Shown: positions 4,060 to 10,092 of the stretch, in pieces | Layout of the letters: each line of letters opens with the position of its first letter | Position numbering within the stretch: the first letter of the stretch is position 1 | Program-made: the position numbers and the translations under genes | From: Gammaproteobacteria bacterium | GTDB taxonomy: Bacteria; Pseudomonadota; Gammaproteobacteria; JAHELT01 | Assembly: GCA_029861595.1 (NCBI GenBank) | Contig: JAOTYY010000009.1 | Coordinates: 1-35,884 of the forward strand | Length of the DNA: 35,884 nt | Direction: 5' to 3' | The notes under the pieces: model-generated | The model's input: only the letters and a program-made list of their open reading frames with translations | Told to the model about the DNA's origin: nothing | Database searches by the model: none

Positions 4060-5940
4060 ATGAGCGACTTCGTCAACAATGCGGTGACCGGCCTGCTCAG
4101 CTATCAGCGCACGCTGGGCACGATCAGCCATAATATCGCCAACGCGACCACGCCTGGATTCAGCCGGCAGCAGACACTGTTGAGCGCGCAACCGGCCGTC
4201 GTCAGAGGGCGCGAAGGTAACGGTGTGCAGGTGCTGGACGTACGCCGTCACTACGACCAGTTCCTGACTCTGCAGTTGCGCGACACCCAGGCGCTGCAAA
4301 GTCAGCTGGAAGCGTTTCACTCGCAGGCCGCGCTGCTGGATGACGTGCTGGCGGATCCCCAGGGTGGCGTGACCCCCGCGTTGCAGGCGTTTTTCTCCGC
4401 CGTGCAGGAACTCGCGGACGACCCGGCTTCCACAACCGCGCGCATTGCCCTGCTTAACGAAGGCGACGCGCTGGCGGCACGCTTCCACTATCTGGATGAC
4501 CGCATGGCGGATCAGGCGACCTCGGCCAATCAACGCATCGAGGGCATGGTCAATGAAATCAACGCGCTCGCCAGGTCGTTGGGCGAAATCAATCAGGACA
4601 TTCTCGGCGTAGGTGGTAGCCGCGCACAATCCAATCCGGATCTGCTGGATCGTCGTGATCAGACCTTGCTGGAGTTGTCGAAACTGGTCACGGTCAGTGC
4701 CGTGGAGCAAGCCGACGGGCGAATAAACGTATTCATCGGCAGCGGTCAGACATTGGTCACCAACGATTCCGTGTTTACGCTGTCGACGTTCGCCGATGCT
4801 GCGGACGCATCGCGTCTGCGCATCGGTTACAACGGTGTCGCTGGCAGCGGCGACATAACCGATGCACTGAACGGTGGTGAACTGGGCGGCGTGCTGCAGT
4901 ACTCACAAAGTCTGTTGCCGGAGGCGCGCAATATGCTGGGTCGCGTCGCCATTGCGCTCGCTCAGAGTTTCAACGCGCAGCACCGCGATGGCATGGATTT
5001 GAATGGCAACCTGGGCGGGGATTTCTTCAGCGTCGCCGCGCCACCAGTACTGGGCAACGCGAACAATATCGGTGCGGCGACCGTGACGGCCGCGGTCACT
5101 GACATCACGCAGCTCACGGTGCAGGACTATACGCTAGGTTTCGACGGCGCGCTGTTTACGCTGAGCGCCGCCGACGGCAGCAGCAGTGTCGCCGCAGCCG
5201 GACCGACGCTTACGCTCGATGGAATCACAGTGAATGTCGCCGGGGCGGCGGCCGCAGGCGATAGCTTCATAATTCGGCCGACCCGCATTGGCGGCCAGAC
5301 GCTGGCGGTGGCGATCGCGGACAGCGATGCGATCGCGGCTGCCGTACCCATCACGACGAGTACCGCCCTGGGTAACGCGGGTAGCGCGAGCATCAGCACC
5401 GGCGAGGTGCTGGACGTCAACGATCCGAACCTGCTCGATACGATCACGCTGCGGTTCAATTCCGCCACCGATTACGATGTGCTGGACCCAAACGGCATGG
5501 TGCTGGCCGCCGCGCAGCCGTATACCAGCGGCGCGAACATCGACATCAACGGTTGGCGGGTACAGATCAGCGGTGTACCGCAAGCCGGGGACAGTTTCAC
5601 GGTGCAGTCCAACGTCGGCGGCATTTCCGACAATCGCAATGCCCTGCTGCTGGGCGGACTGCCGACCACCGGCATCATCGACGGCGGCACGGCCACTTAT
5701 CAGGAAGCGTACAGCTCTCTGGTCGGCAGCGTCGGAGCCCAAACCCGCGAAGCGCGCGTTAATGCCGATGCGCAACAAACATTGTTCGACAGCGTGCAAG
5801 GCCGACGCGAGTCGGTCTCCGGCGTGAACCTGGACGAAGAAGCCGCCAATCTGATTCGTTTCCAGCAGGCTTATCAGGCGTCGGCGCGCGTCATAGCGAC
5901 AGCCGATGAGCTGTTTCAAAGTCTGCTCAACGCGGTCTGA
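4060..5940 (+). CDS. flgK: Hook-filament junction protein FlgK (HAP1)
   Basis: FlgK is the first junction protein between hook and filament, exported through the flagellar secretion channel. The 626-residue product starts with the rod/hook-type helix (SHNIANATTPGFSRQQ, about residues 22-37). It ends with the family signature VNLDEEAANLIRFQQAYQASARVIA, the C-terminal coiled-coil partner. The middle holds two related beta domains, each ending in a GDSF motif (near nt 5260 and 5590), a common FlgK arrangement. The 84-bp gap after flgJ, longer than its neighbours, fits an independent sigma-28 promoter overlapping the flgJ end. flgL follows after 5 bp. Confidence 0.96.
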   Translation: MSDFVNNAVTGLLSYQRTLGTISHNIANATTPGFSRQQTLLSAQPAVVRGREGNGVQVLDVRRHYDQFLTLQLRDTQALQSQLEAFHSQAALLDDVLADPQGGVTPALQAFFSAVQELADDPASTTARIALLNEGDALAARFHYLDDRMADQATSANQRIEGMVNEINALARSLGEINQDILGVGGSRAQSNPDLLDRRDQTLLELSKLVTVSAVEQADGRINVFIGSGQTLVTNDSVFTLSTFADAADASRLRIGYNGVAGSGDITDALNGGELGGVLQYSQSLLPEARNMLGRVAIALAQSFNAQHRDGMDLNGNLGGDFFSVAAPPVLGNANNIGAATVTAAVTDITQLTVQDYTLGFDGALFTLSAADGSSSVAAAGPTLTLDGITVNVAGAAAAGDSFIIRPTRIGGQTLAVAIADSDAIAAAVPITTSTALGNAGSASISTGEVLDVNDPNLLDTITLRFNSATDYDVLDPNGMVLAAAQPYTSGANIDINGWRVQISGVPQAGDSFTVQSNVGGISDNRNALLLGGLPTTGIIDGGTATYQEAYSSLVGSVGAQTREARVNADAQQTLFDSVQGRRESVSGVNLDEEAANLIRFQQAYQASARVIATADELFQSLLNAV

Positions 5941-5945
5941 TCATC

Positions 5946-7745
5946 ATGCGCATATCCACTGCCCAGCTGTTTCAGCAAAGCATCCAACAGATCCAGCAAC
6001 GCCAGGCCGACATCAACGAACTGGTGGAAAAGATCAGCTCGGGGCGTGCGCAGCTGCGGCCGTCCGACGATCCGTTCGTGGCGGCGCGTAGTCTGGAAAT
6101 GCAGCAGAAGATCGCGCGCACCGATCAGTTTCAGGAAAACATCGTGCTGGCGCGCACCAACCTCGCGACACAGGATACGGTGTTGCAGGATGTCAACGTT
6201 GCGCTGCAGCGGGTACGAGAACTGGCAGTGCAGGCGAACAACGCGAGTCTCACTGCCGAGAATCGCGCCCAGATTGCGGCAGAAGTCAATGAGCGCATCA
6301 GCGAGCTCAGACAACTGGCCAATACCGTGAACGCCGACGGCGATTTTCTGTACGCGGGATTTCGCGGCGATACCGAACCGTTTGCAACGGCCGTAGTGGG
6401 GGCGCTCAGCTACATTGCGTATCAGGGAGACGACGGCAGCCGCTTCATGCAGGTGGGCGACAAACGGCAGTTGCAGACCAGTGAGCCCGGCAGCGATGTG
6501 TTTCAGAGAATTCGCAGTAACAACGCGCTGCTGACCGAAACACAGGCCGCCAACCTGGGCACCGGACAGATCGCACCGGCGACGATCGTCGACCCGACCC
6601 GGATAGGCGAATACGCCTACACGTTTACCGGCGCCGCCGCTCGTAATGACATCATGTTTCTGGACGACATGGCCGGCGGGCAGGACGGCGTGACCTTTAC
6701 CCTGCAGGGCCGCACCTACGAGCTCGACGTTGGTGGCGGTGGCGTCTTGGCGGGGAACATTGGCGTCGCCATAGCGGCCAACGATCCTGCGGCGACGATT
6801 GCCGGACTGGTGCAGGCGCAGCTGGCCGCCGATGTGACGGCGGGGGATCTCAATAACATCACGGTCACGGCGGCCGGTGCGGACGTGCAGATCATGTCCG
6901 ATGTGGCGACCGGCACTACGACGCATACGGATGTGGCTACCGTGCTGGCCACCAACTATGCAATTACGCCCGCTGGCCAGACCAATGTCAGCACCGTGAC
7001 GCTGGACGGGGTCACCTACGAATTCCGCTTCGACAACGAGGCGGCACTGGCGGGGAACGTGAAAGTATCGCTAGGCGCCCTGACGGCCGGCACCACGGAC
7101 GATCAGGCGAGTAACTTCGCCGCGGCGATCAACGCCCAGAATGCCGGGGGCAACACGACTTACAGTGCTGTCGCGGACGCCAATGTCACCGCAGTGCAAA
7201 CGGGTGCACAGCATAACTATCGCATTGTGATCAAAGCTGGCGGTTTGTACGACGTGGTCGACGATACGCTCGGCTTGAACGTGATCACCGATGCGACCTA
7301 TACACCGGGACAACTGATTGCCTTCAACGGCATTGAGACCGCCGTCATCGGTACGCCCAACGTAGGGGACTCCTTCAGTATTTCCGCGGGCACGCACCAG
7401 GATATTTTTACCACGGTTGCGACGTTCGCCCACGGCCTGCGCGATCCGATCGACGATACGGTCACGGCGGAACGCATTCGTCTGACGCTGGAGGATCTTG
7501 ATGCGGCGATCGACCACGTATCGCAGCAACAGGCGAACGTGGGGGGGCGCTTGAACGCGCTGGAGACCCAGCAGGATGAAAACGCGGCTTTCAATCTGCA
7601 GTTGCGCGAAAGCCTGTCCGATATCGCCGATCTGGACTACGCTGATGCGGTTGCACGACTGGAGTACAGCCTGTTCGTGCTGCAGGCCGCGCAGCAGAGC
7701 TTCGCTCGGGTCGAATCCGTCAGTCTGTTCGATTTTATCGGTTGA
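5946..7745 (+). CDS. flgL: Hook-filament junction protein FlgL (HAP3), enlarged
   Basis: FlgL is the second junction protein, joining FlgK to the first flagellin ring. Both flagellin-like ends are present: MRISTAQLFQQSIQQI with [16 protein letters not shown] at the N-terminus, and LEYSLFVLQAAQQSFARV at the C-terminus. The conserved FlgL block before the C-terminal helix (YDVVDDTLG ... GTPNVGDSFSI ... DIF) is intact. The protein has 599 residues, against roughly 300-440 in most FlgL proteins. The excess lies at about residues 225-405 and matches a segment of the flagellin encoded just downstream (see module entries). The frame is continuous, so this is an inserted domain and not a broken gene. 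Confidence 0.93.
   Translation: MRISTAQLFQQSIQQIQQRQADINELVEKISSGRAQLRPSDDPFVAARSLEMQQKIARTDQFQENIVLARTNLATQDTVLQDVNVALQRVRELAVQANNASLTAENRAQIAAEVNERISELRQLANTVNADGDFLYAGFRGDTEPFATAVVGALSYIAYQGDDGSRFMQVGDKRQLQTSEPGSDVFQRIRSNNALLTETQAANLGTGQIAPATIVDPTRIGEYAYTFTGAAARNDIMFLDDMAGGQDGVTFTLQGRTYELDVGGGGVLAGNIGVAIAANDPAATIAGLVQAQLAADVTAGDLNNITVTAAGADVQIMSDVATGTTTHTDVATVLATNYAITPAGQTNVSTVTLDGVTYEFRFDNEAALAGNVKVSLGALTAGTTDDQASNFAAAINAQNAGGNTTYSAVADANVTAVQTGAQHNYRIVIKAGGLYDVVDDTLGLNVITDATYTPGQLIAFNGIETAVIGTPNVGDSFSISAGTHQDIFTTVATFAHGLRDPIDDTVTAERIRLTLEDLDAAIDHVSQQQANVGGRLNALETQQDENAAFNLQLRESLSDIADLDYADAVARLEYSLFVLQAAQQSFARVESVSLFDFIG
6618..7139 (+). repeat. FlgL copy of a 174-residue module shared with flagellin
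   Basis: This stretch encodes FlgL residues 225-398. It aligns without a gap to flagellin residues 337-510 (nt 8974-9495). By hand I count about 124 identical residues of 174. At DNA level 6683-6746 and 9039-9102 match at 55 of 64 positions. The best conserved parts are [17 protein letters not shown] and YEFRFDNEA. The module itself contains two related halves, each with a beta-type (T/L)xGxxYE(L/F) start followed by an Ala-rich helix-like part. Confidence 0.9.
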
Positions 7746-7873
7746 CGCCGAGTCCGTTCACGCTGTGTTCAAGTATTTTTCAAACTCGCCGTTACCCCTT
7801 TTCCGCCTGCCACCGGGGGCAGTGCATACGTCACATTTTCAAGGGATTACGCGCGCTATTTACCCGGGTGTAT

Positions 7874-7900
7874 TAAAGCTCAAACCTGCAACGCCGATAA
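7874..7900 (+). promoter_or_regulatory. Predicted sigma-28 (FliA) promoter for fliC
   Basis: TAAAGCTC (7874-7881), 11 bases, then a perfect GCCGATAA -10 element (7893-7900). This is close to the full FliA consensus. It lies in the 220-bp gap between flgL and the flagellin gene, giving a leader of roughly 55-60 nt. An AGGAG ribosome site (7954-7958) stands 7 bp before the flagellin ATG. The remainder of the gap (7746-7873) shows no clear gene or terminator. Confidence 0.9.
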
Positions 7901-7965
7901 ACGAGGCAGGTCCTGGTCCATGAAAGCTGCGACAACGCGGCCACTGAATATGTAGGAGCTTAGAT

Positions 7966-10092
7966 ATGCCTCAGGTAATCAACAGCAACATTATGTCGCT
8001 GAACGCGCAGCGGAATCTGAACAACACTCAGTCGTCACTACAGACGTCGCTGGAACGGTTGTCGTCCGGTCTGCGCATCAACAGTGCGAAAGACGACGCT
8101 GCCGGTCTCGCGATCGCGGAGCGCTTCACTTCGCAGATTCGCGGTCTCAATCAGGCGGTACGCAACGCCAACGACGCGATTTCACTGGCGCAGACCTCGG
8201 AAGGTGCGCTAGCGGAATACAGCAACAACCTGCAGCGGGTACGCGAGCTGGCCATCCAGTCGGCCAACGCCACCAACTCCGCTTCTGACCGGCAGTCGCT
8301 GAACGCGGAAGTCCAGCAGTTGCTCGCAGAGATGCAACGAGTTGCCGTGCAAACCAGTTTCAACGGCCGCAACGTCCTGGACGGCACCTTCAACGGCGCG
8401 CAGTTCCAGATCGGTGCGTTCTCCGGCCAGACCATCAACGTGAACGTCACCAACTCGCAGACCAGCGCGTTGGGTTCATACCAGGTCGGCAACTCGGCGA
8501 CCAACGTCAGCGGTCAAGCGCTGGCCGCAGGCGACCTGACGGTCAACGGTGTGGACGCCGGCATCTCGGTGTCGGGGTCGGCGGAGGATATTTCGGCCGC
8601 GATCAATGCCATCAGCAGCGAGACGGGCGTTACCGCCTCGGCCAGCACGTCGGTCACCAGCGCGAATACGTTGCAGCGCAACCAGGGCCTGTTGTCTGGC
8701 GACATCGTGATCAACGGTGTGAACATCGGTGCGGTCAACGGCTCGAACAATATCTCCACTCAGGGTTCGAACGTCGCTTCGGCGATCAATAACCTGACCA
8801 ACCAGCACGGTGTGATCGCCACTTCCGATCAGGCTACCGGTCAGCTGACGCTCAGCTCTTCGACTGGCGCCAACATTATCATCACCAGCGACAATGGTGA
8901 CGCCGGTTACTCGCGAATCGAAAACGCCGCGGGCATCGAAGTCAGTGCCAGCACCGAGCAGTCACAGGCCACCTACACCATCACCGGCACCGCCGGTCGT
9001 AACGACATTACCTTCGTTAACGACACAGCGGGCGATCAGGACGGCGTGACCTTTACGCTGCAAGGCCGTACGTACGAGCTGGATGTCGGTGGCGGTGGTG
9101 TTGCAGCCGGTAACATCCAGGTCACTTATGCCGCTAATGACACCGGTGCGACTATCGCAGGCGCCGTGCAGGCAGTGCTGGCCGCGGATGTCACCGCTGG
9201 TAACCTGAACAACGTCACCGCGACGGCCGCGGCGGCGGACGTTCAGATTCTGTCTGATGTCGCGACCAGCACCCTCACGCACACCGACATGACCACGGGT
9301 TTGGCCACGAACTACGGCATCGTGTCTGCCGGTGTAGCCAACGGCGACACGCTTACTCTGGGTGGTGTGATCTACGAGTTCCGCTTCGACAACGAAGCTG
9401 CCACAACGGGCAACACCAAAGTGAGCCTCGGCGTCAACGCTGCCGGTACGCAGGACAACCAGGCGACCAACCTGTCGACTGCGATTACCGGTCAGTATAC
9501 GGCGATCAACACCAACATCACCTCCGCAGTGGCCACGAACGTTGTCACCGTGACCTCGGATCTGCTGGGCAGCCCGGGCGATACGACCGTTGACGGAACG
9601 TTCAGCGGCGTTGCAGGTGCTGCTGAAGACTTGAACGGTGGTACCGGTACCGCGCTTGACGGCGCCGGCACGGCACAGAACAACTACGGCATTCTGCAGT
9701 TGAACTCGCCGCAGCAGTTCGTGATCTCCGGTAACAACACTACGAAGGCAGGCTTGCAGTCGGCGACTTCGACCCTGATTGCGATCAACTCGATCGACGT
9801 GAGCACGGTCTCTGGTGCCAACACTGCCATCGACCTGGTCGACGGCGCCTTGTCTCAAGTGGCGAGCATCCGGGCCGACCTCGGTGCGGTGCAGAATCGA
9901 CTGCAGTCGACGATCTCGAATCTGTCGACCGCCTCGGAGAACTTCAGTGCTGCCCGTTCACGCATCCAGGATGCTGACTTCGCCGCGGAAACTGCCGCCC
10001 TGACCCGCGCACAGATTCTGCAGCAGGCCGGCATAGCGATGCTGTCGCAGGCGAATGCACAACCGCAGACGGTATTGGCGCTGCTCCAGTAA
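7966..10092 (+). CDS. fliC: Flagellin, enlarged variable region
   Basis: This is the filament subunit. The N-terminal D0/D1 region (residues 1-170) is standard: [37 protein letters not shown], and [12 protein letters not shown] from residue 89, the region that TLR5 recognises in known flagellins. The C-terminal D1/D0 ends in [20 protein letters not shown]. The centre has two hook-IN-like repeats ([10 protein letters not shown] and [10 protein letters not shown] types, about residues 185-300) and then the module shared with FlgL (337-510). At 708 residues it is longer than the 400-500 usual in Pseudomonas-type flagellins. It has its own sigma-28 promoter and a strong terminator, so it is a single-gene transcript. 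The symbol fliC is by convention (fliC/flaA/flaB). Confidence 0.97.
8974..9495 (+). repeat. Flagellin copy of the 174-residue module shared with FlgL
   Basis: This stretch encodes flagellin residues 337-510, ungapped against FlgL 225-398 (nt 6618-7139). The copies are in direct orientation, 2356 bp apart. In the flagellin the module sits in the variable, surface-exposed part of the protein, which is inferred from the usual flagellin layout. The internal halves begin near [13 protein letters not shown] and [13 protein letters not shown]. Confidence 0.9.

What the first reader, a model, noticed from the sequence alone, without database searches (positions are those of the whole stretch)
6618..9495. 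Same 174-residue module in the junction protein FlgL and in flagellin
FlgL 225-398 and flagellin 337-510 align without gaps, at about 124/174 identical residues by hand count, and the DNA is also clearly related (55 of 64 bases in the best block). Both proteins are much longer than usual because of it. FlgL and flagellin are known homologues only in their terminal helices, and their outer domains normally differ. A shared outer domain suggests module transfer or gene conversion between neighbours, or matching outer-surface chemistry at the junction and along the filament, for example adhesion, sheath formation, glycosylation or phage/immune recognition.
Basis: partly seen in the sequence, partly recalled or inferred. 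Interest (0 to 1): 0.82.

Follow-up and report, generated by a model that had tools for sequence, protein, structure and literature searches.

The report
Flagellin outer domain copied into FlgL
In one little-known lineage of swimming bacteria, the ring protein that joins the flagellum's hook to its filament carries a copy of the filament protein's own outer surface domain, which suggests that the filament's surface pattern is continued down onto its base.

Summary
Confirmed: FlgL 225-398 and flagellin 337-510 align without gaps at 124/174 residues (71%), against 68% of bases and 43% of third codon positions. The module is two ~80-110-aa beta-rich units. In FlgL it is an insertion of about 200 aa beside an intact D2. 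A congeneric genome, the only other one held of this order, has both copies.

The copies are not recently converted: FlgL orthologs (80%) are closer than the two copies within a genome (71%), and synonymous sites are saturated. Flagellin is the older owner: the two-unit module sits at the same place in flagellins of several other gammaproteobacterial orders, while in all genomes searched the units were found in FlgL in only four. In the tree the FlgL copies nest inside this lineage's flagellin copies (98/95). So flagellin was copied into FlgL before the two species split, and the copy has been kept under purifying selection (dN/dS 0.11, equal to the FlgL core). Later, unit A of one flagellin was replaced.

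In 34 genomes with both genes in hand, same-genome sharing occurred in three. Two other outer domains are shared between FlgL and flagellin across genomes. Most likely role (inferred): FlgL supplies a matching outer-domain partner for the lowest flagellin row.

The parts
5946..7745 (+). flgL, hook-filament junction protein, 599 aa (about 200 aa longer than the usual ~400)
   Evidence: TIGR02550 266.8 bits against cut-off 127.2; Flagellin_N and Flagellin_C; most FlgL of the class have open frames near 400 aa
6381..6605 (+). first part of FlgL D2 beta-sandwich (residues 146-220)
   Evidence: AF2 model, pLDDT about 80-90 for residues 146-220; aligned to standard FlgL
6606..7217 (+). inserted region of FlgL (residues 221-424), absent from 400-aa FlgL; holds the flagellin-type module
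   Evidence: A8 alignment: standard FlgL jump from 'VIDPT..' to 'Y.I.F...Y.V.D'; hmmsearch with an insert-free FlgL profile splits in two around it
6618..6947 (+). FlgL module, unit A (residues 225-334)
   Evidence: 76% aa identity to flagellin unit A of the same genome
6948..7202 (+). FlgL module, unit B (residues 335-419)
   Evidence: 55% aa identity to flagellin unit B; second repeat of the same unit
7218..7442 (+). second part of FlgL D2 (residues 425-499), resumes at 'YRIVIKAGGLYDVVDD'
7966..10092 (+). flagellin gene, 708 aa, the only flagellin in the genome
   Evidence: Flagellin_N 155 bits, Flagellin_C 95 bits; the genome search finds only this and FlgL
8476..8955 (+). flagellin residues 171-330, two Flagellin_IN-like repeats before the module
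   Evidence: weak Flagellin_IN match at 190-233; aligned repeats
8974..9303 (+). flagellin module, unit A (residues 337-446)
   Evidence: excess synonymous divergence against G001 confined to this unit
9304..9573 (+). flagellin module, unit B (residues 447-536)
4060..5940 (+). flgK, neighbouring junction protein, with FlgK D1 and D2-like domains; no copy of the module
   Evidence: the module is found only twice in the genome
10603..12000 (+). fliD, filament cap; no copy of the module

Best explanation
The FlgL of this lineage carries a second-hand flagellin outer domain. Shown by sequence: (1) a two-unit beta-rich module is an old outer domain of certain gammaproteobacterial flagellins; (2) before the two known species of this genus split, a copy from this lineage's flagellin was inserted as a whole (about 200 aa) just before the 'YxIxF' strand of FlgL's D2 sandwich, leaving D0, D1 and D2 intact; (3) it has since been inherited vertically and held by purifying selection as strong as that on the FlgL core, while unit A of one species' flagellin was later replaced. 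Inferred: in the assembled flagellum 11 FlgL subunits form the ring on which the first flagellin row stands. Flagellin outer domains often contact the outer domains of neighbours along the protofilament, so the lowest row would lack partners. The FlgL copy gives that row a matching outer-domain neighbour, anchoring the outer-domain lattice at its base, presumably to stiffen the junction for swimming in viscous surroundings.
For: Identity and coordinates. Both copies in the sister genome. Flagellin as the older owner: two-unit modules at the same place in flagellins of G201, G099, G290, G269, G072, G309, G384 and others; FlgL carriers only G000, G001, G290 and G344. Tree: FlgL copies nested in this lineage's flagellin copies, 98/95 and 98/97. 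Clean insertion beside an intact D2; AF2 gives D1 and D2 pLDDT about 80-95 and matches solved FlgL 5zj0, 5yti and 7c7z. Constraint: FlgL module dN/dS 0.109 against D0/D1 0.108 and D2 0.100. Mosaic flagellin: unit A dS 2.18 against 0.6-0.9 elsewhere in flagellin, and {G000_Fla,G001_Fla} rejected in unit A (p_AU 0.015) but not in unit B. Functional inference rests on literature: FlgL ring directly under FliC with its D2 exposed (PMC12221982); outer domains contact the +11 neighbour and the network is needed in viscous media (PMC10256154); outer domains dimerise into sheaths (PMC8931119).
Against: No structure or experiment shows FlgL-flagellin outer-domain contact. In related genomes (G201, G072, G099) flagellin carries this module while FlgL carries a different one, so matching is not required. 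In Salmonella the outer domains are splayed and largely dispensable (PMC10256154). Unit B has drifted to 55% between FlgL and flagellin, less than expected if both faces of one interface were fixed. Only two genomes of this order exist for comparison.
Confidence: 0.55

Rival explanations
1. Decoration without a specific partner: the copy was a chance domain insertion into a permissive part of FlgL. It is kept as a stable, exposed surface (bulk, adhesion or glycan scaffold) and not for contact with flagellin.
For: FlgL D2 tolerates different inserts at or near this place in other genomes, mostly not matching their own flagellin. The unit's predicted fold resembles inserted domains of phage virion proteins, a generic surface decoration.
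Against: The module is as constrained as the FlgL core (dN/dS 0.109 against 0.108), and unit A, 76% identical to its flagellin counterpart, is the best kept part.
Confidence: 0.25
2. Recent or repeated gene conversion between the adjacent flgL and flagellin genes keeps the two copies alike.
For: The genes are adjacent. Unit A of G000 flagellin is closer to FlgL (76%) than to G001 flagellin (67%).
Against: Third positions saturated (43%), no long identical runs (20 bases at most) and no excess of genome-specific shared sites (unit A: 2 sites of each split; unit B: 16 orthologous, 0 genome-specific). G000 FlgL+Fla pairing rejected (p_AU 0.03 and 5e-5). FlgL orthologs 80% against 71% within the genome.
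Confidence: 0.06
3. Independent acquisition: FlgL and flagellin each received the module from a wider pool of outer domains, not from each other.
For: Outer domains move: distinct families recur in FlgL and flagellin of different lineages, and G290 and G344 have divergent units in FlgL.
Against: The four copies of this order form one clade against all other flagellin modules (98/97). No outside sequence approaches 71%; the next best are about 40-48%.
Confidence: 0.1
4. Uniform outer surface: FlgL and the filament present the same epitopes or glycans to phages, protists or hosts, and selection is on recognition.
For: Shared T/A/G-rich beta surface; flagellin outer domains are known targets (established knowledge).
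Against: No glycosylation gene was seen among the 24 window genes scanned. FlgL is only about 11 of thousands of subunits, so its effect on recognition would be small. The FlgL copy shows no elevated dN/dS.
Confidence: 0.04

Closest known systems
FlgL D2 domain of Xanthomonas campestris and Legionella (PMC6155364; PDB 5zj0, 5ziz, 5yti, 7c7z)
   Same: This FlgL has the same D1 rod and D2 beta-sandwich. The paper already describes a D2 resemblance between two axial proteins, FlgL and FlgK, and suggests quasi-homotypic D2 contacts.
   Different: Here an additional ~200-aa domain is inserted, and it resembles flagellin's outer domain, not FlgK's.
DE (domain-extension) regions of Oceanospirillales giant flagellins (PMC6248924)
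   Same: Flagellin outer domain built of duplicated units in Gammaproteobacteria, enlarged by internal duplication.
   Different: Those authors' profile hit only flagellins; here the domain is in FlgL too. Sequence relation to DE was not testable (their profile is in supplements that were not available).
Outer-domain networks of P. aeruginosa PAO1 and sheath-forming E. coli flagellins (PMC10256154, PMC8931119)
   Same: Provides the proposed mechanism: outer domains contact neighbours along the protofilament and support swimming in viscous media.
   Different: The P. aeruginosa flagellin structure 4nx9 is only a weak fold match (E 0.64, prob 0.28); FlgL is not discussed in either paper.
Phage tail-sheath and baseplate inserted domains
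   Same: Predicted fold of the module resembles them (PDB 8kee E 6e-3, prob 1.0; BFVD best 4e-8).
   Different: No sequence match in 50,697 phage genomes or viral contigs; fold likeness only, from a model with mean pLDDT 74.

Membership tests
FlgL (TIGR02550) | score above the curated cut-off of the equivalog model | tested here: met
   266.8 bits against 127.2
FlgL (TIGR02550) | flagellin-like D0/D1 ends with FlgL-type D2, gene next to flgK | tested here: met
   Pfam Flagellin_N/C, AF2 and Foldseek to solved FlgL, flgK at 4060-5940
Flagellin (PF00669 and PF00700) | both terminal domains above gathering cut-off | tested here: met
   155.4 and 95.2 bits
Flagellin_IN repeat (PF07196), as identity of the module's units | profile match | tested here: not met
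   no Flagellin_IN match in the module; hhalign of units against the IN repeats of these flagellins 5.7%
Any described Pfam or NCBIfam domain, for the module | match above curated cut-off | tested here: not met
   no NCBIfam family for the module alone; only sub-threshold Pfam matches
DE region of Oceanospirillales flagellins | match to the authors' profile | not testable with these tools
   profile is in a supplement not available here; the paper reports hits only in flagellins
Outer-domain sheath or dimerising outer domain | outer domains pair in the filament | not testable with these tools
   needs cryo-EM or multimer prediction

The most novel reading that the evidence does not exclude
FlgL has a general habit of borrowing flagellin outer domains: its D2 acts as a socket into which flagellin-type modules are repeatedly inserted (at least three module families found here). 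In some lineages the module matches the bacterium's own flagellin, so that the junction ring acts as row zero of the filament's outer-domain lattice.
Probability: 0.3. Interest if true: 0.7.

Novelty: new variant of a known kind. Interest (0 to 1): 0.52.

Why it matters
FlgL and flagellin are known as homologues through their cores, and their outer domains are treated as unrelated; a published profile search for one flagellin outer domain hit flagellins only (PMC6248924). A documented flagellin-to-FlgL domain transfer, kept under strong purifying selection, makes it testable whether the filament's outer-domain network is anchored at the junction and why FlgL has variable outer domains at all, whose role has not been determined experimentally (PMC6155364). 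It also gives a natural chimera that shows which part of FlgL tolerates a large insertion.

Tried and rejected
Recent gene conversion: rejected by saturated third positions, FlgL orthologs closer than paralogs, and AU tests. Chance similarity: rejected (E 1e-66). Assembly chimera: rejected, both copies in a second genome. My first alignment put all FlgL inserts in one loop; the cleaner alignments show that this module sits just before D2's 'YxIxF' strand, while the other common insert sits about ten residues later, so 'same loop' was dropped. I first read 16 'x' sites in unit A as proof of conversion of G000 flagellin; in a four-taxon pattern they are singletons of G001 flagellin, so the claim was moved to outgroup trees and synonymous divergence. 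Module as an elaborated Flagellin_IN repeat: not supported. Weak Lsr2 and DUF4178 matches: sub-threshold, taken as chance. Phage or plasmid source: no match. Genome-contig scans found only the sister genome. A phylum-wide sample of 399 genomes found no further carrier at E<=1e-5. AF2 of whole FlgL left the module unresolved (pLDDT about 25-40) because only two rows cover it.
Full report
OBSERVATION. FlgL (5946-7745, 599 aa) residues 225-398 and flagellin (7966-10092, 708 aa) residues 337-510 align without gaps at 124 of 174 identical residues and 357 of 522 bases. With gaps the homology continues to about FlgL 419 / flagellin 536. The genome holds these two copies only and only these two flagellin-family genes. 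Base identity at codon positions 1, 2 and 3 is 79, 83 and 43%. Where the residue is the same, the codon is the same 57 of 124 times, against 55.8 expected from codon usage. The similarity is old at the DNA level and kept at the protein level.

WHAT THE MODULE IS. It consists of two related units: A (about 110 aa) and B (about 85 aa) align with each other and with units from other flagellins. No Pfam or NCBIfam family covers it, no solved structure matches it by sequence, and the phage families matched by PHROGs are weak, mostly of unknown function. An AF2 model from ten homologues (mean pLDDT 74) gives each unit three strands, a helix and two strands. Foldseek likens it to domains of phage tail sheath and baseplate proteins: best PDB hit 8kee, E 6e-3, probability 1.0; best predicted viral protein E 4e-8. 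There is no sequence match in phages, plasmids or viral contigs, so this is a likeness of fold only.

THE HOST PROTEINS. FlgL passes the FlgL equivalog model by a wide margin. Against insert-free FlgL of about 400 aa, the extra sequence is residues ~221-424, between 'IVDPTR' and 'YRIVIKAGGLYDVVDD'; the D2 strands resume exactly where standard FlgL has 'YTIxF...YxVxD'. AF2 with 14 FlgL rows gives D1 and D2 at pLDDT mostly 80-95 and leaves 221-421 unresolved, and the model matches solved FlgL structures. The module is therefore an added domain beside an intact D2. In flagellin it follows two Flagellin_IN-like repeats.

DISTRIBUTION. Of 369 genomes sampled across the class, 12 have the unit. Reading the open frames, the two-unit form is a flagellin outer domain in G201, G099, G290, G269 (two flagellins), G072, G309, G384 and more, and a one-unit form is in others. 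In FlgL it is found only in this genome, its one sister genome, G290 (two diverged units) and G344 (one unit). In the order of G201, 8 of 20 genomes have it; all the frames examined are flagellins. The three congeners of G290 have it in neither gene. The sister genome's record is 'Chromatiales bacterium isolate Ww634'. Only two genomes of this order are held.

HISTORY. Amino-acid identities in the module: FlgL G000/G001 80%; flagellin G000/G001 69%; FlgL/flagellin 71% in G000 and 62% in G001. In a maximum-likelihood tree of 16 modules the four copies of this order are one clade (98/97). Inside it the FlgL pair (100/100) joins G000 flagellin (98/95), with G001 flagellin outside. Unit trees differ. 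In unit A, FlgL plus G000 flagellin is a clade (99/96) and the two flagellins together are rejected (p_AU 0.015). In unit B the flagellins are not rejected as a pair, and FlgL stands apart on a long branch. A pair of G000 FlgL with G000 flagellin is rejected in both units (p 0.03 and 5e-5). Synonymous divergence between the two species' flagellins is 2.18 in unit A but 0.6-0.9 in the rest of the gene, so unit A of one flagellin (by the tree, more likely G001's) was replaced from a diverged allele. FlgL shows no such break: dN/dS is 0.108 in D0/D1, 0.100 in D2 and 0.109 in the module. The simplest account is one copying from flagellin into FlgL before the species split, vertical inheritance since then, and a later exchange inside flagellin. 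Ongoing conversion between the two genes is not supported.

HOW UNUSUAL. FlgL is present in 181 of 340 class genomes, mostly near 400 aa. I took loci from about 60 of them, favouring long FlgL, and compared middle regions. Among 34 genomes with both genes in hand, same-genome FlgL/flagellin matches at E<1e-5 occur in G000 (2e-69), G001 (4e-53) and G290 (2e-10) only. The sample is biased towards long FlgL and module-bearing genomes, so the true rate is probably lower. Across genomes, 17 of 63 FlgL middle regions match some flagellin, and they fall into three module families: this one; one shared by FlgL of G201, G072, G099 and relatives with flagellins of G227 and G202 (hhalign 98.4%); and one shared by G132 and G244 FlgL with G308 flagellin (97.5%). 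The unrelated control gave 6%. FlgL and flagellin thus draw on partly common outer domains, usually without matching inside one cell.

HOW IT PROBABLY WORKS. This part is inference. FlgL forms an 11-subunit ring directly under the first flagellin row, with its D2 exposed (PMC12221982). In P. aeruginosa PAO1 each flagellin outer domain contacts the next subunit along the protofilament, and the unbroken network is needed in viscous media (PMC10256154); in several bacteria outer domains pair into sheaths (PMC8931119). A FlgL with the flagellin's own outer domain could give the lowest row the partner it otherwise lacks. The constraint on the FlgL copy fits a role but does not identify it. The main rival is a neutral or generic surface domain that FlgL tolerates.

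NOVELTY. The papers searched describe FlgL D2 as FlgK-like (PMC6155364), describe a flagellin outer-domain profile that hit only flagellins (PMC6248924), and do not describe a flagellin outer domain in FlgL. The library lacks most subscription journals, so absence there is weak evidence. I file it as a new variant of a known kind: an ordinary FlgL with a borrowed flagellin outer domain.

Noticed in passing
L122, L113, L116, L123, L118, L120, L117, L127, L129, L111, L121 (FlgL genes of G201, G072, G099, G179, G203, G226, G269, G094, G214, G037, G305) against L141 and L151 (flagellins of G227, G202): A different ~110-aa outer domain inserted in FlgL D2 is homologous to flagellin outer domains of other genomes (hhalign 98.4%), a second case of FlgL-flagellin domain sharing.
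   Followed up: partly
L119 and L124 (FlgL of G132, G244) against L136 (flagellin of G308): A third shared outer domain, inserted later in FlgL (after D2), matches a flagellin outer domain (phmmer 9e-16, hhalign 97.5%).
   Followed up: partly
L021:1266-2852 and L022:6112-7350 (FlgL of G290 and G344): These FlgL carry two and one diverged units of the module and seem to lack the usual D2, unlike G000, where D2 is intact; the congeners of G290 searched have the module in neither gene.
   Followed up: partly
window 8974-9573 and 6618-7202: The module's predicted fold resembles inserted domains of phage tail sheath and baseplate proteins although no sequence match exists.
   Followed up: partly
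window 7966-10092: The flagellin matches a phage protein family, phrog_16088 (E 1e-89 over residues 1-402), so flagellin-like genes sit in phage-derived collections; not examined whether these are genuine phage genes.
   Followed up: no
L005:8711-9040 against window 8974-9303: Unit A of the two species' flagellins has far higher synonymous divergence (2.18) than the rest of the gene (0.6-0.9), a sign of allele replacement inside the flagellin outer domain.
   Followed up: yes
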